A DNA stretch of 64,000 bases, taken from contig NZ_SNUE01000003.1 of the NCBI RefSeq assembly GCF_012027425.1, forward strand, positions 186,001 to 250,000. Reading direction: 5' to 3'. The notes beneath the pieces were generated by a model. It made no database searches. It was not told the origin of the DNA and worked only from the letters and a program-made list of their open reading frames with translations. The first letter of the stretch is position 1, and the number at the start of each line of letters is the position of its first letter. A program made the position numbers and the translations under genes. This document shows, one piece after another, positions 49,266 through 58,751 of the stretch. The DNA is from Thermococcus sp. MV5. GTDB lineage: Archaea > Methanobacteriota_B > Thermococci > Thermococcales > Thermococcaceae.

Positions 49266-49408
49266 TACCCATATTTCTTTTTCTTGGCTGCAATGTATAA
49301 TCACGTTCATAATTTTTCTTTTTTGGACCTTGATGGCCAATAAAATCTTAATTTGCTGAAGACAAGGGTTATAAAGACTAATTTTAAATGGAGCTTGAGG
49401 TGAGGAGG

Positions 49409-51181
49409 ATGGTTAGGATAATAGATACAACCTTTAGGGATGCTCACCAATCATTAATAGCAACGAGAATGAGCACGAAAGATATGCTCCCAATAGCCGA
49501 GAAGATGGACAAGATAGGGTTTTACTCAATGGAAGTCTGGGGAGGAGCAACTTTCGATGCTGCCCTGAGGTTTCTGAGGGAAGATCCTTGGGAAAGACTG
49601 AGACTCTTAAGAGAGCATATAAAGAAAACAAAACTTCAGATGCTTCTAAGGGGCCAAAATGTTGTTGGATACAAGCATTATCCCGACGATGTTGTGGAAA
49701 AGTTTGTTGAGCTTGCCCACAAAAATGGAATTGATATTTTCAGAGTTTTTGATGCTCTTAATGATGTCAGAAACATGAAAACTGCAATTAAAAAAGCCAA
49801 AGAAGTTGGGGCAGAGGTTCAAGGAGCGATAAGCTATACTACCGGAAAAGTCTTTACTCTAGAGTACTACATGAAGAAAGTTGATGAGTTAATGGAGTTG
49901 GATGTGGATTATATCACAATCAAAGACATGGCTGCTCTTTTAGATCCCCAGACAGCTTATGATCTTGTGAGAGAGATTAAAGAACGTTATGGGATAAAAG
50001 TTAATGTTCATACTCACGCAACCAGTAGCCTAGCTTCGGCTACCTATTTGAAAGCAGTGGAAGCTGGGGCTGACTTCATAGACACTGCTATTTACCCATT
50101 GGCAAATGGAACTGCTCAACCAGCAATTCAAAGTATCTATTACTCATTAAGAAATGGGGACAAACCCAAGCTTGACATGAAGCTTATCTTCCAAATTTCT
50201 CGCTATTTGAGGAAAATGCTTGATGAGAAGTATGAACATTTAATGAACAAAAGAGCACTTCATGGCGATCCAAATGTTTTGATTCATCAAATCCCAGGAG
50301 GAATGTATTCAAACTTAATTTCACAGCTTAGAGAAATGAAGGCTCTTGATAAGTTAGAAACTGTTCTTGAAGAAGTTCCAAAGGTTAGAGAGGAACTTGG
50401 CTATCCTCCTTTGGTAACTCCAACTTCTCAGATAGTGGGGACTCAAGCTGTGTTTAATGTCCTCTTTGGAAGGTACAAAATGATCACAGAAGAAACTAAA
50501 AATTATGTTAAGGGGCTCTATGGCCTGCCACCGGCTCAGATAAAAGAAGAAATTAAGCAGCTTATTATTGGAGATGAGGAACCTATAGCCGTTAGACCTG
50601 CAGACCTGCTTGAGCCTATGCTTGAGAAAGCAAGAAGAGAGCTTGAAGAAAAGGGTTATTTAGAAAAAGAGGAAGACATACTAACATATGCATTATTCCC
50701 ACAGGTAGCATTAGAATTCTTTGAATTAAGAAAACAAGGAAAGCTCAAACCTGTTGAGGAAAAGCCCAAGGGCAAAGTAATAAGGGTCTACGTGGCTGGT
50801 AGGGAATACAAAGTTGGGATAGAAGGAGTTAGCCTTGAAGGTCTAGTTATGCCGTTTTATACTTCATCAGAAATTTCTATGCAAGCAGCATCACAAACTC
50901 CTGTAATACAACCACCTGCTCCGTCTGTTCCAGGGGAGATATCCTTGGCCCAAGCTACAATGATGGGAGAGGACGTAATTTCAGCACCGATGCCGGGTAA
51001 GATTTTGCGTGTTTTAGTTAGTGAAGGGGATGAAGTTATGGTTGGTCAGGGGTTACTAGTGCTAGAAGCAATGAAAATGGAGAATGAGATTCCTTCACAT
51101 AAGAGTGGTGTTGTTAAGAGAATCCTTGTTAAGGAGGGCGACACAGTCGATACAGGTCAACCACTAATAGAACTGGGGTAA
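49409..51181 (+). CDS. Biotin carboxylase partner, PycB/oxaloacetate decarboxylase alpha type
   Basis: A 590-residue carboxyltransferase plus biotin carrier. The TIM-barrel carboxyltransferase comprises IIDTTFRDAHQSLIATRM, SMEVWGGATFDAALRFL, DITIKDMAALL-like VDYITIKDMAALLDP and VNVHTHATSSLASATY. A conserved PycB/OadA middle domain and a short linker (PPAPSVPGEISLAQ) follow. The C-terminal biotinyl domain has the target Lys in VLEAMKMENEIPS. This may be pyruvate carboxylase subunit B or an oxaloacetate/glutaconyl-type decarboxylase alpha subunit; no BirA-independent clue decides. ATG 49409 after GGTGAGG. Confidence 0.9.
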   Translation: MVRIIDTTFRDAHQSLIATRMSTKDMLPIAEKMDKIGFYSMEVWGGATFDAALRFLREDPWERLRLLREHIKKTKLQMLLRGQNVVGYKHYPDDVVEKFVELAHKNGIDIFRVFDALNDVRNMKTAIKKAKEVGAEVQGAISYTTGKVFTLEYYMKKVDELMELDVDYITIKDMAALLDPQTAYDLVREIKERYGIKVNVHTHATSSLASATYLKAVEAGADFIDTAIYPLANGTAQPAIQSIYYSLRNGDKPKLDMKLIFQISRYLRKMLDEKYEHLMNKRALHGDPNVLIHQIPGGMYSNLISQLREMKALDKLETVLEEVPKVREELGYPPLVTPTSQIVGTQAVFNVLFGRYKMITEETKNYVKGLYGLPPAQIKEEIKQLIIGDEEPIAVRPADLLEPMLEKARRELEEKGYLEKEEDILTYALFPQVALEFFELRKQGKLKPVEEKPKGKVIRVYVAGREYKVGIEGVSLEGLVMPFYTSSEISMQAASQTPVIQPPAPSVPGEISLAQATMMGEDVISAPMPGKILRVLVSEGDEVMVGQGLLVLEAMKMENEIPSHKSGVVKRILVKEGDTVDTGQPLIELG

Positions 51182-51236
51182 GTTTTACCGTTTCTTTATG
51201 TTGGGTCCTTTTCTTTGTTTTTGACTTTTCTCCTTT

Positions 51237-51266
51237 TCAAGCCTCGACCTTTAGGATGAGGTGTAG
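51237..51266 (+). repeat. Right-end-like hairpin at left edge of TnpB element (copy e1)
   Basis: TCAAGCCTCGACC, TTTAGG, ATGAGGTGTAG. Same layout as the other copies with a weaker 3' arm. It precedes the TnpB remnant and may be the end of an older insertion or part of the element's left end; the two cannot be separated by eye. Confidence 0.55.
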
Positions 51267-51337
51267 TGTTCGAAGGATTAACCCTTCAGCGGAAGGTAAT
51301 GCTTTTTTAAAGCTTAAAATTCATACCATTTTCTGAG

Positions 51338-51894
51338 ATGAAGCGTTGGGTAACAGTTAAACTTCAACCCTCAAAAGAGCATGAAAAAGCCTTATTCGAG
51401 TTAGCTCAAGCAACGGCGATAATCTGGAACAGACTCAACTACGAGAGGCTTAAACAATTCAAAGAATTTGGAAAAATAGACTTTGGAACAACGGAAAAAG
51501 AAGCTTATTATTCTTTCAAAAACTGGGTTGGCGGTTTAATTACGTCATTAAACGCTTGAAGGAAGTCTCGGAGGAGCATGGTATTAGAGTTTTGGTTGTT
51601 GATGAGTTTTTCACTTCTAAGCTTTGTCCTCTCTGTGGCCAGCGTCATTCTGATGGAAGAATCTTTAGGGGTTTGTTTGAGTGCCACGGGGAGGGCGTTG
51701 TTATGAATTCTGACTTGGTTGGTGCTTTCAACATTTTGAAGAAGGTTGTGAGAATGATAACCCCAAGTCTGAGCGGGCTTTACGCTCAGAGGAGGGGTAA
51801 TGGGGGGAAGGCCCTCCCCGAGGGGCTGAAAACCCTCTTTGAATTGGGCTTTAATGAAGCCCCTCAAACCTCCCCATCACTAGTGAAGGGTTAA
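51338..51894 (+). pseudogene. tnpB: TnpB (RNA-guided nuclease) remnant with central deletion and frameshift
   Basis: The first 66 codons give a TnpB N-terminus (MKRWVTVKLQPSKEHEKALF, then FKNWVGG). After about 51540 another frame carries a TnpB C-terminus: NYVIKRLKEVSEEHGIRVLV, VDEFFTSKLCPLCGQRHSDG, zinc-ribbon Cys, and RuvC-III-like MNSDLVGAFNILKK with its Asp. About 200 residues, including the RuvC-I Asp region, are missing compared with the usual ~400. The second zinc-ribbon CxxC is reduced to CHGEG. It is therefore not a functional nuclease. Confidence 0.8.
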
Positions 51895-51955
51895 CTCGCT
51901 GAAACCCTCACCCTTCAAGACGGGGAGGAGGTCAGTCAACCTGTGGATTAAATAC
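51780..51955 (+). ncRNA. Candidate omega-RNA (reRNA) at the 3' end of the TnpB element
   Basis: In IS200/IS605 elements the omega-RNA overlaps the 3' end of tnpB, includes the right-end hairpin and carries a guide read from flanking DNA. The same arrangement is here: the tnpB tail, arms ACCCTTCA and hairpin CCCTCACCCTTCAAGACGGG, end at GTCAG near 51937. The guide would start just after, in TCAACCTGTGGATTAA. Transcription is not visible; ends are approximate. Confidence 0.35.
51901..51937 (+). repeat. Right-end hairpin of the TnpB element (copy e2, reference copy)
   Basis: GAAACCCTCACCC, TTCAAG, ACGGGGAGGAGGTCAG. It directly follows the TnpB remnant, which identifies this hairpin family as IS200/IS605-type right ends and links the solo copies to transposon activity. 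Confidence 0.8.
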
Positions 51956-52081: not shown

Positions 52082-53815
52082 ATGAACTCTGCAGTGATTA
52101 TATTGGCTGCTGTAATAATATATGTAGCTATGTATTTTACTTATGGAAAGAGTCTTCAAAACAAAGTAGTCAAAGCAGATGCAAACAGACCAACACCAGC
52201 CCACAAGCTTTATGATGGTGTGGACTACGTCCCTGCACATCCAGTTGTTCTCTATGGACACCATTTTGCTAGTATTGCAGGAGCTGGGCCAATAGTAGGT
52301 CCAGCAGTGGCAATGGCGTGGGGATGGGTACCCTCATTGCTGTGGGTATGGTTTGGTAACGTCTTTATTGGGGCAGTACATGACTATTTGGCGTTGATGG
52401 CTTCAGTTAGATACGATGGAAAATCTGTACAGTGGATTGCTGGAAAGATAATGAGCAGAAGGACAGGCATTTCATTTGAGGTGTATATATGGTTTACTTT
52501 GCTATTGGTTGTTGCAGCATTCGTGGCTGTTACCGCAAGACTGCTCGTTTTAACGCCACAAGCAGCAACAGCGACATTATTGTTCCTTCTAGTGGCAATA
52601 CTCCTAGGATGGATGATGTACAAGATGAACGTTAACTTTTACGTTGCAACAGCAATAGGATTGATACTTCTTGTGATAGCAGTGTGGATTGGGTTTAAGA
52701 ACCCCTTAATATTTGTCCCAGGGCAAACAGATGCTACAAGTGCTGCTTATACTCAAGCATACCACTACTGGAATATTATATTGATGGTTTATATTATCAT
52801 TGCATCATCATTACCAGTGTGGGTGCTTCTCCAACCCAGAGATTACTTAAACGCTTACATTCTGTGGTTTGGTCTCCTCATTGGAGGTATTGCATTTATA
52901 GCCCTTGCGAAGCCTTTTGAAGTTCCAGGATTTACAATGTGGTCAGCAAATGTTGTTGGAAAACAACCCTCACCCTTCTGGCCAACAGTACCGTTGGTAA
53001 TTGCATGTGGTGCCTTAAGCGGTTTCCACTCCATAGTTGGTTCTGGAACTTCATCAAAGCAACTTGACAAAGAAATTCACGGATTACTTGTTGGCTATGG
53101 TGGAATGTTTACTGAAGGATTCCTTTCTACAATCGTTATCACTGCTATAGCAGTTTATGGTGTCAAATTGACTGGACTTAACGTTGCTGAATGGGGAACC
53201 CAGTATATTACCAAGGGTGGGCTTGGAACATTTATCGGTGGTTATGCCCAAGGATTGGCTGATTTCTATGGAATAGACATTACACTAGGTAAGACATTTG
53301 CAACTCTTTGGATTGCAGCATTCACATTGACTTCACTTGACACCGCTACAAGGCTTGGAAGATTTGCATGGCAGGAGTTATTTGGAATGGTAACTGATAC
53401 CAGCCAAGGAATCTGGAATACTATCACAAACAAGTGGGTTGCTTCTATAATAATTGCAGGCATCGGAACTTGGATGGCATGGGGTGCTGGATATAAGGTA
53501 TTGTGGCCAGCATTTGCAGGTATGAACCAGTTGTTGGCTTCAATTGCTATGATGACAGCAGCTTTGTGGGCATACAAGATACAGAATGCTGGGAAGTGGA
53601 GTTATGCAGTCTTGATTCCTGCACTCTTCTTATGGATTACAGTTACGGTAGCTATTGTCTGGTATATCATAGTAATTCCATTACCCAACATGAGTACAAC
53701 TATAGCAGTAAAAGGTGCCCTCTCAGTAGGTCTATTACTTAACTTCCTACTTGGATACGACTTCTATCTTGCATGGAAGAGACCGACAGAAGAGTATGGG
53801 GCCGCTCCAGCGTAA
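52082..53815 (+). CDS. cstA: CstA-type carbon-starvation/peptide or pyruvate transporter
   Basis: A 577-residue integral membrane protein with about sixteen helices. CstA signatures: NRPTPAHKLYDGVDYVPAHP, VVLYGHHFASIAGAGPIVGP, WGWVPSLLWVWFGNVFIGAV, CGALSGFHSIVGSGTSSKQL and TSLDTATRLGRFAWQEL. Family members take up peptides or pyruvate. The C-terminus ends in LAWKRPTEEYGAAPA. GGGGGTG precedes the ATG. The compact operon 53873-56366 follows 57 nt downstream and may be co-transcribed. Confidence 0.93.
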   Translation: MNSAVIILAAVIIYVAMYFTYGKSLQNKVVKADANRPTPAHKLYDGVDYVPAHPVVLYGHHFASIAGAGPIVGPAVAMAWGWVPSLLWVWFGNVFIGAVHDYLALMASVRYDGKSVQWIAGKIMSRRTGISFEVYIWFTLLLVVAAFVAVTARLLVLTPQAATATLLFLLVAILLGWMMYKMNVNFYVATAIGLILLVIAVWIGFKNPLIFVPGQTDATSAAYTQAYHYWNIILMVYIIIASSLPVWVLLQPRDYLNAYILWFGLLIGGIAFIALAKPFEVPGFTMWSANVVGKQPSPFWPTVPLVIACGALSGFHSIVGSGTSSKQLDKEIHGLLVGYGGMFTEGFLSTIVITAIAVYGVKLTGLNVAEWGTQYITKGGLGTFIGGYAQGLADFYGIDITLGKTFATLWIAAFTLTSLDTATRLGRFAWQELFGMVTDTSQGIWNTITNKWVASIIIAGIGTWMAWGAGYKVLWPAFAGMNQLLASIAMMTAALWAYKIQNAGKWSYAVLIPALFLWITVTVAIVWYIIVIPLPNMSTTIAVKGALSVGLLLNFLLGYDFYLAWKRPTEEYGAAPA

Positions 53816-53872
53816 GCCTTCTTTCTTTATTTTTAAATTTTCCGTATTTTAAATAATTCTTGAGGTGGTGGT

Positions 53873-54163
53873 ATGGTGAAAAAACTTTTAAAAAAGATTT
53901 TATATTGGGTTTCAATGCCTGCTCGTGTTCTTTGGAAGTTTAATAAAGGGTTCAAGCTTTATTATCTTAGGGGGATTCAGTGGGGACTTGAAGAGTTAGA
54001 GAATGTTTTTGCTCTTCTTTTGTTGGGTAGTTATGTGGGAGTCCCAAACCCTCCGATAGATATTAGCTACCAGTTTCTTCCCCATATGGTTAGGGAAATA
54101 TATATTGTGCAGGAGAAGTCTGTTAATTCATTAACTATAAAGACGGGGTGGTTAAATGTTTGA
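53873..54163 (+). CDS. Small protein, first of a tandem paralog pair
   Basis: A 96-residue protein with basic N-terminus (KKLLKKILYWVSMPARVLWK) followed by a conserved core: ELENVFALLLLGSYVGVPNP, then HMVREIYIVQEKS. The core is shared with the next gene (ELENVFALVLMGSFVGIPSP, HMVREIYVMQ), so the two arose by duplication. One hydrophobic segment could be a membrane-inserted hairpin interrupted by PNPP. The start follows GAGGTGGTGG; the 3' end overlaps the next gene by 8 nt. Function unknown. Confidence 0.82.
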   Translation: MVKKLLKKILYWVSMPARVLWKFNKGFKLYYLRGIQWGLEELENVFALLLLGSYVGVPNPPIDISYQFLPHMVREIYIVQEKSVNSLTIKTGWLNV

Positions 54164-54425
54164 GAATATAAAAGCATTTTTTAAAGGTTTTTTTAGGTCA
54201 TTCAAAGCACGCTCAACAGAATATATTGAATTTGAGGAGAGAGAACTTGAAAATGTCTTTGCCCTGGTACTTATGGGATCATTCGTGGGGATCCCATCAC
54301 CTCCAACGACACTTGTTATGAGATTAATGCCTCATATGGTTAGGGAAATTTATGTTATGCAAAGGAGAGCCGGTGAGATGGATGATATATTTGGAGAAAT
54401 TGCCGCGATGTTTGAGATTACTTGA
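54156..54425 (+). CDS. Small protein, second of a tandem paralog pair
   Basis: An 89-residue paralog of the preceding gene. Amphipathic N-terminus (FENIKAFFKGFFRSFKARS), conserved ELENVFALVLMGSFVGIPSP and PHMVREIYVMQ, and an acidic, helical tail DDIFGEIAAMFEIT absent from the first copy. It overlaps the first gene by 8 nt and lies 9 nt ahead of the ArsA-like ATPase. Tight packing suggests the pair works with the ATPase, perhaps as membrane clients or an adaptor (inference). Confidence 0.83.
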   Translation: MFENIKAFFKGFFRSFKARSTEYIEFEERELENVFALVLMGSFVGIPSPPTTLVMRLMPHMVREIYVMQRRAGEMDDIFGEIAAMFEIT

Positions 54426-54434
54426 GGTGATAAA

Positions 54435-55439
54435 ATGAAGGAGTATTTATTTCCACGAGAAGGTTTTAGAGTTTTATTTTTCATAGGAAAAGGTGGGGTT
54501 GGTAAAACGACTACTTCGGCAGCAGTTTCAGTTGCTTTAGCTAGGAAGGGTTATAAAACTCTGATAGTGTCAATAGATCCTGCTCATAATCTCGGTGATG
54601 TATTTGAAGTTAAACTAGAGGATAAGCCTAAGCAGATAACCGAAAACCTTTATGCGATGGAACTTGATATGGAGAAGCTAATCAAGAGTTATTTGAGACA
54701 TTTAGAGGAGAATCTAAAGCATATGTACCGTTACCTTACAGTGATAAATCTAGAGAAATACTTTGAAGTTCTCAGCTTTTCTCCGGGTATAGAGGAGTAT
54801 GCTACACTTGAAGCGATTAGAGAAATATTGCAAGAGGGGGATAAATGGGAGATCATAATCTTCGACACTCCACCTACGGGGTTAACCCTTAGGGTGTTAG
54901 CTCTTCCAGAAATTGCGCTTATATGGACAAAAAAGCTCATAGAAATTAGGAAAAAGATTTTAGAAAAGAGAAGAGCTATAGAAAATATACAAGGAGAAAG
55001 AAAGTTTGTAATTGAAGGTGAAGAGTATAAGCTTCCGAGTATGGAGGAAGAGGATCCTGTTATGAGGGAACTAAGAGGTTATGAAGAAGAAATAAAATTC
55101 GTTCGTGAGACTATCACTAATTCTAAAAAAAGCAGTGTAATTGCAGTGATGAATCCAGAAATGCTTCCTCTATATGAGACGGAAAGGGCTCATGAAGCAT
55201 TAAGAAAGTTTAAGATTCCTTTTAATTTGGTAGTCATAAATAAGGTCATTGAACTGCAGGGGGATATTCCGAGGATAAGAGTAAAAATAGAGGCCCAGAA
55301 AAAAGTGTTAAGAGAAATAGACGGAATATTCAGGGGAATTGATATTGTAACGATACCCATGTTTGAGGAGGAGCCAAGAGGTATGAAATGGTTGGAAAAA
55401 ATTGGAGGGTTAATAGTTGGAGATTCGGGAAATCTATGA
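54435..55439 (+). CDS. ArsA/Get3-family ATPase
   Basis: A 334-residue single-domain ArsA/Get3-type ATPase: deviant Walker A FIGKGGVGKTTTSAAV, switch I VSIDPAHNLGDVFEV (Get3 DPAHS), switch II FDTPPTGLTLRVLALP (Get3 DTAPTGHTLRFL), and nucleotide-specificity loop VINKVI. The central insert is charged (RRAIENIQGERKFVIEGEEY) and lacks the zinc CxxC dimer motif and the arsenite Cys triad. So arsenite pumping is unlikely; protein or membrane-protein handling is more likely (inference). Start after GAGGTGATAAA. Confidence 0.9.
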   Translation: MKEYLFPREGFRVLFFIGKGGVGKTTTSAAVSVALARKGYKTLIVSIDPAHNLGDVFEVKLEDKPKQITENLYAMELDMEKLIKSYLRHLEENLKHMYRYLTVINLEKYFEVLSFSPGIEEYATLEAIREILQEGDKWEIIIFDTPPTGLTLRVLALPEIALIWTKKLIEIRKKILEKRRAIENIQGERKFVIEGEEYKLPSMEEEDPVMRELRGYEEEIKFVRETITNSKKSSVIAVMNPEMLPLYETERAHEALRKFKIPFNLVVINKVIELQGDIPRIRVKIEAQKKVLREIDGIFRGIDIVTIPMFEEEPRGMKWLEKIGGLIVGDSGNL

Positions 55440-55707
55440 AGAACTCAAAAAAGTTAGAGAGCCAATAAGTGGGGAGGATATAGTGAGTCTTGGTATTGTG
55501 AGTTTGATAAGAAAGGAGGATGATAAAGTAGTTATCTTTTTGGGTCTTGCTCGTAGAACTCCTAGACACCCTTTTGAAATGGCTCTTAACTGGGCAGTGC
55601 ATGCACGGATTGTTAAGGATATAGTAAAGGTTTTAGAGGGCAAAGTTAACTTTGAGATAATTGATGATATGACATTTCAAAGATATTATCCAATAGAGGA
55701 GGTTTAA
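55417..55707 (+). CDS. MIP18/DUF59 family protein
   Basis: A 96-residue MIP18-like protein. Family pattern: IYEELKKVREPISGEDIVSL, GIVSLIRKEDDKVVIFLGLA, PFEMALNWAVHARIVKDIVK. MIP18/SufT proteins act in Fe-S cluster maturation, but the usual (T/S)xxxC cysteine region is here ARRTPRHPFE without a Cys. TTG start behind GGAGGG, overlapping the ArsA gene by 23 nt. Placed between the ATPase and an anchored protein. Confidence 0.78.
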   Translation: MEIREIYEELKKVREPISGEDIVSLGIVSLIRKEDDKVVIFLGLARRTPRHPFEMALNWAVHARIVKDIVKVLEGKVNFEIIDDMTFQRYYPIEEV

Positions 55708-55709
55708 TA

Positions 55710-56366
55710 ATGAAGGTTACTCCTGAGATGTTGCTTTTGATAATGGTCTTAGGTGCAGTGGCGGCTTTACAGTTCTATAAAGGTAGAAGACTGAACTTAA
55801 GCATAATGGAATACTACCTACGGACAATAGAAAGTATAGTAAAACCAAAGGACAAAGAATATGTGTGGATAGGAGGATATGTAGGATTTAGAGCATTTTA
55901 TAAGGTTAATGAGGCCAATTTGGATAAGTTTGAGTATACCTTAACACTTCTACCAAGACAAAGCATCCTCTATTTCCCAGTTTCAAAGATAATTAATAGG
56001 CATGACAAGATATACTTTGTTATAAAGCCCTACACCACAATTAGACGTGAAGTACACTTGATTCAGAAGGGTTATTATAGGTTTAAACCGAAGATTGAAG
56101 ATGAAGAACTTCTTCAGAGGGAAGTAATTGAAGTGAATGGAAAGCAGTACGAGGTGCTCTTTGAGAAAAGACGCGATGTAGAGCTACTTAGAGACTTCAT
56201 TCAAGGATTTTCCAAGGCGGAAAATGTTAAGCATATATCACTTACACCAAAAACTAACGTACTATATGTCTTCATGAAGCCAGAGATTGAAACCATAGAG
56301 CAGGATGTGAGACACATAATCCGTTTTGTTAATGAAAGTTTAAAAGAGGGTCTCTTTGATAGATGA
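55710..56366 (+). CDS. Membrane-anchored conserved hypothetical protein
   Basis: A 218-residue protein with an N-terminal anchor (EMLLLIMVLGAVAALQFYKG) and a cytosolic domain of mixed alpha/beta: EYVWIGGYVGFRAFYKVNEA, FEYTLTLLPRQSILYFPVSK, IYFVIKPYTTIRREVHLIQK, and a helical tail. By the positive-inside rule (KGRR after the helix) the bulk faces the cytosol. GAGGAGGTTTAATA precedes ATG; 2 nt from the DUF59 stop. Last gene of the operon. Function unknown. Confidence 0.8.
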   Translation: MKVTPEMLLLIMVLGAVAALQFYKGRRLNLSIMEYYLRTIESIVKPKDKEYVWIGGYVGFRAFYKVNEANLDKFEYTLTLLPRQSILYFPVSKIINRHDKIYFVIKPYTTIRREVHLIQKGYYRFKPKIEDEELLQREVIEVNGKQYEVLFEKRRDVELLRDFIQGFSKAENVKHISLTPKTNVLYVFMKPEIETIEQDVRHIIRFVNESLKEGLFDR

Positions 56367-56409
56367 AGACAAAAACCTAATAAATTTCTTTTTAAATTTT
56401 TACCCACTC

Positions 56410-56447
56410 GAAAGCCTTGCCTTTTAGGGCGGGGGAGGAGGTCAGTC
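56410..56447 (+). repeat. Solo right-end hairpin that carries the ribosome site of the next gene (copy f)
   Basis: GAAAGCCTTGCC, TTTTAGGG, CGGGGGAGGAGGTCAGTC, then ATG 56448. The stem pairs CCTTGCC with GGGCGGGG (with G-U pairs). GGAGGAGGT, 4-6 nt ahead of the ATG, is the only ribosome site for the methyltransferase gene and adjoins the 3' arm. Confidence 0.78.
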
Positions 56448-57380: not shown

Positions 57381-57441
57381 AATAGAAAGAAAAACATTTA
57401 ATAATATGTAAACATACAGTAATTTTAGGTGAATTCCAGTG

Positions 57442-58077
57442 ATGTTGCAACTAAGGGATTTTTTAAATGATATCCATGAGGGGGAGAGAGTATTCATTGA
57501 GTATGAGTCCACGTCTCATCCAGAACTTTTTCTTGATGGGTTGGTGAAATGGAGCAATGAAGAGAGGGTACCACTCTTAATCGTTGACATGCTAGATACA
57601 TTTCATCTATTTGTACAGCAGCTTAGATTTTTAGGGTATAATACTCATCATTTGGAAAATCTTTGTGTTATCAAAGGAGGGGGTAAAGTTGAACTTGGGA
57701 GGGTAATTGGAAGGGTTAGAATAATGGAAGAGTTCTATGTGCAACTTAAAGAGTATAATGATGCAATAAGGTTATTTTTTGAGAAAGTCAAATCTGATAG
57801 GGCCGTTATTGTGTTTTTGGGCATGGAAAAGTTCATGTACTCCTTCCAAGAATCTTCCTATAGGGTCGAAGAGTATTTTGATAAGGTTGTAAGAAGACCA
57901 TTATTTAAGGGAAACATAATCTTTGTTTTTGCTCTGAAGGGTATCATGAGTGCTCAAGTCGAGGCACTATGGCATGAGAGTTCCACAAGAGTTCTTGAGA
58001 TCAATGGTAGAGGAGATAGATTTTTCATTAAAAAAGCACCCAAACTTGATCATTTGGATGGGGTGATAGAATTATGA
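57442..58077 (+). CDS. DUF257 family protein (copy 1)
   Basis: A 211-residue Thermococcales-specific DUF257 protein. Pattern: GERVFIEYESTSHPELFLDG, VPLLIVDMLDTFHLFVQQLR, VELGRVIGRVRIMEE, and a final ARVLEINGRGDRFFIK-type strand (TRVLEINGRGDRF). The core looks like a RecA/KaiC-like domain without Walker A: the GEx start and IVDMLD strand echo Walker B. Start ATG 57442 or GTG 57439, site GGTGAATT. Overlaps copy 2 by ATGA. Function unknown. Confidence 0.83.
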   Translation: MLQLRDFLNDIHEGERVFIEYESTSHPELFLDGLVKWSNEERVPLLIVDMLDTFHLFVQQLRFLGYNTHHLENLCVIKGGGKVELGRVIGRVRIMEEFYVQLKEYNDAIRLFFEKVKSDRAVIVFLGMEKFMYSFQESSYRVEEYFDKVVRRPLFKGNIIFVFALKGIMSAQVEALWHESSTRVLEINGRGDRFFIKKAPKLDHLDGVIEL

Positions 58078-58751
58078 GTTCCACAGTGGAGGAAATCTTA
58101 GAATATATAAAGTCAGTGATGTGGAGAGAAGGGATTGTGGTAGAATATTCTTCTAGTGAGCCCATTCATTTAATTTTTAAATGGTTGGTGGGAATCTCTA
58201 AGAAAATTACTGATAATATACTTGTCCTAGATGTTTTAGATGTTTTATCAATGTTAAAATTAAATCTTGATGTTGCTGGGAAGGATACATCTTTCATACA
58301 TGAGCTTGATGTAATAAAAATAGGAGGGAACATAAAGCTTGGTAAGATAATAGGTTATGTGGATCCCCACCAAGATATTACAGTATATGCATCTAAGTAT
58401 TCCAAAATTCTTCGGGAATATTACGAAACCCACAAAAATATAGTCTACTTCCTCTTTGGAATGGAAAAGCTTGTGCATCTGCAAGAAAGGAAAAGGGCAT
58501 TTGAATTATACGCTACAAATTATACACGGTATGTTTTTGGTGATGAAGAGAGAGTGGGAATTTATTTCATAAATAGGGACATAGCGACAAGGCCATTGCT
58601 CTTACAGTTGGAAGAGGCAGCTTCTAGAGTTGTGGAGGTTATTCATGAAGAAGGAACATTAAAAATTAAAATTAGAAAGTCTCCACGCTTGGATGATTAT
58701 GGAAAGGAATTTAAGATCCCTCTTGAAGATCTTCGTCATTTAAAATTTTAG
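58074..58751 (+). CDS. DUF257 family protein (copy 2)
   Basis: A 225-residue second DUF257 protein, homologous end-to-end with copy 1: GIVVEYSSSEPIHLIFKWLV, NILVLDVLDVLSMLKLNL, IKLGKIIGYVDPHQDITV, FLFGMEKLVHLQERKRAFE and SRVVEVIHEEGTLKIKIRK. Start overlaps the copy 1 stop (ATGA). Its 3' end overlaps the convergent gene by 41 nt. The tandem pair suggests heterodimer formation (inference). Function unknown. Confidence 0.83.
   Translation: MSSTVEEILEYIKSVMWREGIVVEYSSSEPIHLIFKWLVGISKKITDNILVLDVLDVLSMLKLNLDVAGKDTSFIHELDVIKIGGNIKLGKIIGYVDPHQDITVYASKYSKILREYYETHKNIVYFLFGMEKLVHLQERKRAFELYATNYTRYVFGDEERVGIYFINRDIATRPLLLQLEEAASRVVEVIHEEGTLKIKIRKSPRLDDYGKEFKIPLEDLRHLKF

What the first reader, a model, noticed from the sequence alone, without database searches (positions are those of the whole stretch)
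52082..56366. Candidate new system: CstA, two small paralogs, Get3/ArsA-like ATPase, MIP18 protein, membrane-anchored protein
Five genes with overlaps or 2-10 nt gaps follow a CstA transporter. The ATPase has Get3-like switches (DPAHN, DTPPTGLTLR) but no zinc or arsenite Cys. The two small proteins share ELENVFAL-LMGSFVGIPSP and HMVREIY cores with a Pro-broken hydrophobic segment, as expected of clients or adaptors. A Cys-less MIP18 protein and an inner-face anchored protein complete it. This looks like a membrane-insertion or complex-assembly machine distinct from the eukaryotic-type GET pathway.
Basis: partly seen in the sequence, partly recalled or inferred. Interest (0 to 1): 0.74.

Follow-up and report, generated by a model that had tools for sequence, protein, structure and literature searches.

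The report
CstA transporter module with dedicated ATPase
In this heat-loving archaeon a CstA-type nutrient (probably pyruvate) transporter gene is followed by its small partner proteins and a private ATPase related to Get3/ArsA; this gene team was already noticed in 2010, but tests here show it is inherited as an almost unbreakable unit and that its small protein and E. coli's pyruvate-uptake protein YbdD replace each other beside CstA, so its untested role becomes easy to check.

Summary
In detail: cstA, two small paralogs, a Cys-less Get3/ArsA-family ATPase, a Cys-less MIP18-family protein and a membrane-anchored protein lie in one tight operon. It is not a new system. Castillo & Saier (2010, PMC2963123) described this cluster (cstA-cstX-arsA-cstY), including Thermococcus and the CstX duplication. 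The small proteins are distant relatives of NCBI's 'cory-CC-star' family. New here: (1) all 67 Thermococcales loci read keep the order, and four closed genomes lack cstA, cstX, ATPase and cstY together; (2) 79 of 80 bacterial cstX loci lie between cstA and the ATPase; (3) in 187 Gammaproteobacteria, CstX and YbdD (needed for E. coli CstA pyruvate uptake) occur only with CstA, never together, and follow different CstA subtypes; (4) a MIP18 gene, not mentioned in 2010, belongs to the archaeal version; (5) a pyruvate carboxylase subunit gene lies directly upstream in most Thermococcales. Best reading: a CstA transporter with a small partner (CstX) through which a dedicated ATPase controls or drives it. 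A Get3-like assembly role for CstX/CstA is the main rival. A general insertion machine is not supported. No function has been tested by experiment.

The parts
52082..53815 (+). cstA: CstA-family membrane transporter, 577 aa (short subtype)
   Evidence: PF02554 1.1e-129, 434 bits; the short subtype (~560-607 aa), the one found with CstX, is distinguished from the long (~700 aa) YbdD-linked subtype
53873..54163 (+). S1: first CstX paralog, 96 aa; dispensable (seen in 30 of 67 Thermococcales loci)
   Evidence: NF041419 cory-CC-star E 6e-4, below curated cut-off; 48% identical to S2 over 61 aa
54156..54425 (+). S2: core CstX protein, 89 aa, predicted helix - GIPSPP turn - helix, no Cys-Cys tail; in all 67 Thermococcales loci read
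   Evidence: NF041419 E 3e-6, below curated cut-off; bacterial vs Thermococcales CstX profile comparison 93% probability, 2.7e-7; AlphaFold2 mean pLDDT 69.5, all helical
54435..55439 (+). Get3/ArsA-family ATPase, 334 aa, no Cys, catalytic motifs intact
   Evidence: TIGR00345 246.5 bits against cut-off 135; PF02374; no second family member in the genome; tree
55417..55707 (+). MIP18 (FeS_assembly_P) family protein without Cys; absent in 4 of 67 Thermococcales loci
   Evidence: PF01883 24.7 bits against 23.5, 17 of 18 orthologs match; profile hits solved MIP18-fold proteins 3lno, 1uwd
55710..56366 (+). CstY: N-terminal TM anchor (about aa 3-21) plus soluble domain, 218 aa, inferred to face the cytosol (KGRR after the TM)
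   Evidence: hydropathy; matches the '~210 aa, single-TMS CstY' of PMC2963123; in every Thermococcales locus read and next to CstA-CstX-ATPase in four other archaea
49388..51181 (+). conserved upstream neighbour: pyruvate carboxylase subunit B / oxaloacetate decarboxylase alpha (context, not part of the gain/loss unit)
   Evidence: NF006761 836.8 bits; directly upstream of cstA on the same strand in 51 of 67 Thermococcales loci, gap 7-227 bp in 50; kept in genomes lacking cstA
51227..51935 (+). insertion of a degraded TnpB (IS200/IS605-type) element separating pycB from cstA in this genome
   Evidence: TnpB C-terminal fragment; alignment with the uninterrupted relative L091 places the junctions

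Best explanation
A CstA-family transporter (most likely for pyruvate or a similar small carboxylate; substrate inferred) works with an obligate small partner, CstX (S2, and a spare copy S1), and a dedicated homodimeric Get3/ArsA-family ATPase. Shown by sequence evidence: the three are one evolutionary unit in archaea and bacteria, and CstX takes the place that YbdD takes beside the other CstA subtype. Inferred: the ATPase docks at the inner face on CstX, and its nucleotide-driven opening and closing is passed through CstX to CstA, controlling or energising uptake, as ArsA does for ArsB. CstY (membrane-anchored) and the Cys-less MIP18 protein are archaeal add-ons that would hold or tune the ATPase at the membrane; their roles are guesses. 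The module-level claim is much more certain (about 0.85) than this mechanism.
For: Linkage: order CstA-[S1]-S2-ATPase-[MIP18]-CstY in 67/67 Thermococcales loci. The closed genomes G006, G020, G034 and G035 lack CstX, CstA, ATPase and CstY all together. CstA upstream of and ATPase beside CstX in 79 of 80 bacterial loci; the exception, L171, is cut off at its contig end. Replacement: in 187 Gammaproteobacteria, CstA 27, YbdD 18, CstX 5, no genome with both, none without CstA; YbdD only with long CstA (18/19 vs 0/8, P 4e-6), CstX only with short CstA (0/19 vs 5/8, P 7e-4); 0 of 21 further CstX genomes hold PF04328. In the YbdD-CstA loci read no ArsA-type ATPase was found. YbdD is needed for CstA pyruvate uptake in E. 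coli (PMC5847655). Pyruvate context: pycB upstream. CstA-linked ATPases separate from ArsA and methanogen Get3 by one branch (91/69, moderate) and keep P-loop and switch motifs. In six other archaeal loci the ATPase is a tandem pair whose second copy has lost the switch-I Asp (DP to NP), suggesting a stable asymmetric complex.
Against: BtsT, of the same transporter family, is described as a H+ symporter (PMC7730263), and some CstAs (B. subtilis, L. lactis, the three lone short CstAs G382, G407, G410) have neither CstX nor YbdD detected, so ATP is not needed for the core transport step. No physical interaction is shown. The CstX-YbdD replacement is by occurrence only; their profiles are not detectably homologous. 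Related genomes are not independent samples, so the P values overstate the case. The substrate in Thermococcales is untested.
Confidence: 0.42

Rival explanations
1. Dedicated assembly factor: the Get3-like ATPase is a chaperone that captures CstX (a helix-turn-helix hairpin with a hydrophobic face) and loads it onto or into CstA at the membrane, with CstY as membrane receptor; it does not drive transport.
For: Get3/TRC40 subfamily score; best solved match is methanogen Get3-type 3zq6; GET can target monotopic hairpin proteins (PMC9123286); a membrane-anchored protein with an inferred cytosolic domain fits a receptor; CstA transport itself can run without the ATPase; AlphaFold2 gives CstX as helix-turn-helix.
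Against: CstX hydropathy is below TM level (max19 1.22-1.39 here, mean 1.14 in bacteria) and its hydrophobic part is central, not C-terminal; no CxxC zinc site; catalytically degenerate second ATPase in the tandem archaeal pairs.
Confidence: 0.35
2. General membrane-insertion or complex-assembly machine serving many clients.
For: Get3-type ATPase plus small helical proteins plus anchored protein; it is the only Get3/ArsA member in this genome.
Against: Not found without CstA in the genomes tested, and lost together with it in closed genomes; a general machine should persist without CstA; small proteins are not tail-anchored.
Confidence: 0.08
3. Metal, metalloid or cofactor delivery system: the ATPase and MIP18 protein load a metal or cluster onto CstX/CstA, as ArsA and iron-sulfur carriers do; the Thermococcales version is a derived Cys-free form.
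For: All 83 bacterial CstX proteins, and all but one of the YbdD proteins read, end in Cys-Cys; MIP18-family genes with CxxC lie next to the module in two other archaea (L320, L324); small CC-tailed proteins HcsL/HcsS sit behind Halobacterium ArsA; E. coli btsT-yjiX is followed by the P-loop GTPase yjiA.
Against: Here the small proteins, ATPase, MIP18 and CstY have no Cys at all; archaeal CstX lacks the CC tail but keeps the ATPase; no YjiA-like GTPase beside the YbdD genes read in other genomes.
Confidence: 0.12
4. Arsenite or other oxyanion export system.
For: Membership of the ATPase in the ArsA Pfam family.
Against: No arsenite Cys; no arsB, arsD, arsR or acr3 among the window neighbours; PMC2963123 found no ars genes in cstA operons.
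Confidence: 0.02

Closest known systems
cstA-cstX-arsA-cstY operons of Castillo & Saier 2010 (PMC2963123), ArsA clusters 14-18
   Same: Same genes and sizes (CstX ~90 aa, CstY ~210 aa, ATPase ~330 aa), including Thermococcus and Pyrococcus members and the CstX duplication in T. kodakarensis
   Different: That paper does not mention MIP18; the all-or-none inheritance, the alternation with YbdD and the pycB neighbour were not in the passages read; it calls CstX single-TMS, which the hydropathy here does not support
E. coli CstA-YbdD pyruvate transporter and btsT-yjiX-yjiA operon
   Same: CstA-family carrier with a small obligate partner encoded next to it; btsT-yjiX also has a P-loop NTPase gene behind it
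   Different: Long CstA subtype; YbdD not detectably homologous to CstX; no ArsA/Get3-type ATPase beside the YbdD loci read; YbdD ends in CC, S1 and S2 do not
NCBIfam NF041419 cory-CC-star protein (bacterial CstX)
   Same: Same position between cstA and the ATPase gene; aligned core LF-LL-GxPNP-P
   Different: S1 and S2 score below the curated cut-off and lack the C-terminal Cys-Cys
Get3/TRC40 (methanogen Get3-type 3zq6, 3ug6)
   Same: Fold family, P-loop and switch I/II motifs
   Different: No CxxC, no tail-anchored client in the operon, tied to CstA in the loci read; separate branch in the tree
ArsA-ArsB arsenite pump
   Same: ATPase of the same family that couples to a secondary carrier
   Different: No arsenite Cys, single-domain ATPase, no ars genes

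Membership tests
CstA transporter family (PF02554) | profile match above gathering score over the conserved carrier | tested here: met
   434 bits against 27
cstA-cstX-arsA-cstY operon (Castillo & Saier 2010) | CstA, ~90 aa CstX, ~330 aa single-domain ArsA homologue and ~210 aa single-TM CstY in one operon, no ars genes | tested here: met
cory-CC-star family NF041419 | score above curated cut-off (80 bits) | tested here: not met
   27.1 (S2) and 19.8 bits (S1); significant but distant
cory-CC-star family NF041419 | C-terminal Cys-Cys | tested here: not met
   83/83 bacterial CstX proteins end in CC, S1 and S2 have no Cys
TRC40/GET3/ArsA subfamily TIGR00345 | score above cut-off (135 bits) | tested here: met
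   246.5 bits
Get3 (tail-anchored protein targeting) | CxxC zinc-binding pair at the dimer interface | tested here: not met
   No Cys in the ATPase; no conserved Cys in CstA-linked Thermococcales or bacterial ATPases
Get3 (tail-anchored protein targeting) | client with C-terminal TM helix | tested here: not met
   Hydrophobic part of S1/S2 is central and below TM level; other clients not testable
Get3 (tail-anchored protein targeting) | ATP-dependent client binding | not testable with these tools
   needs biochemistry
ArsA (arsenite pump ATPase) | arsenite-binding Cys triad and linked arsB/arsD/arsR | tested here: not met
   no Cys; no ars genes among the window neighbours
MIP18 / FeS_assembly_P (PF01883) | profile match above gathering score | tested here: met
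   24.7 against 23.5; 17 of 18 orthologs match
MIP18 / FeS_assembly_P (PF01883) | Cys for metal or cluster binding | tested here: not met
   no Cys here; neighbouring homologues in L320 and L324 keep CxxC
YbdD/YjiX (PF04328) | profile match or profile-profile homology | tested here: not met
   no Pfam hit; hhalign probability about 2% or less
CCDC47 (PAT complex) for CstY | profile match above gathering score 27.7 | tested here: not met
   best 15.9 bits, E 0.0076, in a few orthologs only; none of five outgroup CstY proteins match; the CstY profile finds no CCDC47 chain in the PDB

The most novel reading that the evidence does not exclude
A prokaryotic GET-like pathway devoted to a single client pair: the ATPase, with CstY as receptor and MIP18 as helper, captures the hairpin protein CstX and installs it in CstA, giving a transporter whose activity depends on an ATP-dependent assembly step; CstX and YbdD would then be two independent inventions of the same transporter subunit.
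Probability: 0.22. Interest if true: 0.68.

Novelty: already known. Interest (0 to 1): 0.4.

Why it matters
Most studied ArsA/Get3 ATPases serve arsenite pumps or tail-anchored proteins; here is a widespread branch tied to a nutrient transporter, with no experiment on it found in the papers searched since its prediction in 2010. The alternation of CstX with YbdD links it to a measured phenotype (pyruvate uptake in E. coli), so the question 'what does the ATPase do for CstA?' can be tested directly in genetically tractable hosts such as Thermococcus kodakarensis, Bacillus relatives or E. coli.

Tried and rejected
1) CstX homologous to YbdD/YjiX: attractive (both end in CC beside CstA), but hhalign gave probability about 2% or less and aligned little beyond the tail; kept as replacement by occurrence, not homology. 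2) CstY as an archaeal CCDC47: 4 of 18 orthologs hit PF07946 at E 0.007 or weaker, but outgroup CstY proteins do not, and the CstY profile finds no CCDC47 chain in the PDB; rejected as probably chance. 3) CstY fold: single-sequence AlphaFold2 model pLDDT 40, matches meaningless. 4) CstX model (pLDDT 69.5) has no PDB match. 5) The client-groove region of the ATPase is no less hydrophobic than in methanogen Get3, so it does not separate the two mechanisms. 6) No solved structure of CstA, S2 or YjiX by sequence (the PRDM9 hits to YjiX are spurious). 7) pycB as part of the gain/loss unit: rejected, it persists where cstA is lost. 8) A YjiA-like GTPase as a general companion of YbdD: not found beside the YbdD loci read. 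9) A first genome-contig query with mixed archaeal and bacterial CstX had no usable conserved stretch.
Full report
What is there. The six genes are confirmed on the + strand: cstA 52082-53815, S1 53873-54163, S2 54156-54425, ATPase 54435-55439, MIP18-like 55417-55707 (TTG start) and a TM-anchored protein 55710-56366. CstA is a clear PF02554 member; the ATPase is PF02374/TIGR00345 (246.5 bits against a cut-off of 135); the MIP18 protein passes the PF01883 gathering score narrowly (24.7 against 23.5), and 17 of 18 orthologs match. S1 and S2 have no Pfam match but hit NCBIfam NF041419 'cory-CC-star' significantly though below cut-off (E 6e-4 and 3e-6); S2 orthologs ring for it across Thermococcales. 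S1, S2, ATPase, MIP18 and the anchored protein contain no Cys.

Prior art. Castillo & Saier 2010 (PMC2963123) describe this: archaeal ArsA homologues of ~327 aa in operons with CstA, a ~90 aa CstX and a ~210 aa CstY, listing Thermococcus and Pyrococcus members, and noting the CstX duplication in T. kodakarensis. They proposed that the ATPase energises CstA and that CstX links the two. S1/S2 are CstX and the anchored protein is CstY. MIP18 is not mentioned there (0 occurrences). No experimental follow-up was found in the papers searched.

Linkage tests. In 94 Thermococcaceae genomes S2 is found in 82. In 67 loci read in full, the order CstA-[S1]-S2-ATPase-[MIP18]-CstY holds in every one; S1 is detected in 30, MIP18 is lost in 4 (L132, L134, L138, L154). 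The four closed genomes without S2 (G006, G020, G034, G035) also lack CstA, the ATPase and CstY; the other S2-negative genomes are fragmented, and three of them carry CstY or a CstA or CstY piece (G082, G049, G050). The module is thus gained or lost whole. The ATPase is the only Get3/ArsA-type protein found in this genome (the next hits are short matches at E 6e-10 or weaker).

Beyond Thermococcales. Plasmid records showed cstA - cory-CC-star - 'ArsA family ATPase' in Paracoccus, Pseudochrobactrum and Cytobacillus. A scan of one genome per species found 331 bacterial CstX matches; of the 80 kept, 79 have CstA upstream and the ATPase beside them (one ATPase hit is on the other strand, L191), and the exception, L171, is cut by the contig end. 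Six other archaeal loci have CstA-CstX with two tandem ATPases (L083-L088; L088 is a short contig without cstA); these form two old sister clades, and the second copy has lost the switch-I Asp and shows no intact switch-II motif, so an asymmetric heterodimer is likely (inference). CstY sits with CstA-CstX-ATPase in four further archaea; MIP18-family genes carrying CxxC lie beside two of these (L320, L324). The Cys-free state of the Thermococcales MIP18 is therefore probably derived.

CstX versus YbdD. In E. coli, YbdD is needed for CstA pyruvate uptake (PMC5847655), and BtsT, of the same family, is described as a H+ symporter (PMC7730263). In 187 Gammaproteobacteria: CstA in 27, YbdD (PF04328) in 18, CstX in 5; no genome has both, none has either without CstA; YbdD goes with the long (~700 aa) CstA and CstX with the short (~560-607 aa) one (P values, not corrected for relatedness). 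In one genome (G424) YbdD and CstA are about 860 kb apart yet co-occur. None of 21 further CstX genomes has PF04328. All 83 bacterial CstX proteins end in Cys-Cys, as do all but one of the YbdD proteins read (L255 ends CPC); archaeal CstX does not. Sequence profiles do not show homology between the two. They therefore look like two solutions to the same job: a small partner of CstA. No ArsA-type ATPase was found beside the YbdD-CstA loci read, so the ATPase belongs to the CstX solution.

Physiological hint. A pyruvate carboxylase subunit B / oxaloacetate decarboxylase alpha gene (836.8 bits) is directly upstream of cstA on the same strand in 51 of 67 loci, 7-227 bp away in 50. In this window the two are split by a degraded TnpB element whose insertion points are clear against the uninterrupted relative L091 (51227-51935). 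The pyruvate enzyme stays in genomes that lack cstA, so this is context, not membership.

Structure and mechanism. CstX is predicted all-helical with a GxPxP turn (pLDDT 69.5) and matches nothing solved. Its hydrophobic stretch is central and below the usual TM level, so it is not a tail-anchored client; a peripheral or monotopic hairpin is possible, and GET handles such hairpins in yeast (PMC9123286). The ATPase keeps its catalytic motifs but has no CxxC and no arsenite Cys. CstA-linked ATPases are set apart from ArsA and methanogen Get3 by one branch with moderate support (91/69). What is shown: one unit; CstX and YbdD alternate; the ATPase is tied to CstX and CstA. What is inferred: the ATPase acts on CstA through CstX. 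Whether it drives or gates transport (0.42) or assembles the CstX-CstA complex (0.35) cannot be decided from sequence; I rank control or energising slightly higher because the ATPase is tied to the transporter everywhere looked, has an asymmetric stable-looking pair in some archaea, and has the ArsA-ArsB precedent (established knowledge), while the lack of need for ATP in YbdD-type and lone CstAs argues the other way.

Verdict. The added evidence makes its role testable.

Noticed in passing
window 51227-51935: Degraded TnpB element (two ORF pieces, 51338-51559 and 51556-51894) inserted between pycB and cstA; the uninterrupted site is seen in relative L091.
   Followed up: yes
window about 56400-56447: A stretch ending GGGCGGGGGAGGAGGTCAGTCA downstream of cstY closely resembles the right end of the TnpB element (GACGGGGAGGAGGTCAGTCA at about 51918-51937): a possible solitary element end or guide-RNA remnant.
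   Followed up: no
L328:2436-2983 (Halobacterium pNRC100): Two small proteins ending in Cys-Cys (HcsL, HcsS) directly behind a two-domain arsA: CC-tailed small partners of ArsA-type ATPases may be a wider theme.
   Followed up: partly
L083-L088 (archaeal cstA loci): Tandem ATPases in which one copy has lost the switch-I Asp (DP to NP) and shows no intact switch-II motif: a likely half-dead heterodimer beside CstA.
   Followed up: partly
L321 (G139), L325 (G289): CstY homologues without a detectable CstA, CstX or ATPase nearby; a possible function of CstY on its own.
   Followed up: no
window 57439-58751: Two adjacent DUF257 proteins (Pyrococcus-type family of unknown function) downstream of the module.
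   Followed up: no
G328, G382, G407, G410: CstA genes with neither CstX nor YbdD detected in the genome (in G328 the CstA gene is split at contig ends), so the small partner is not universally required.
   Followed up: partly
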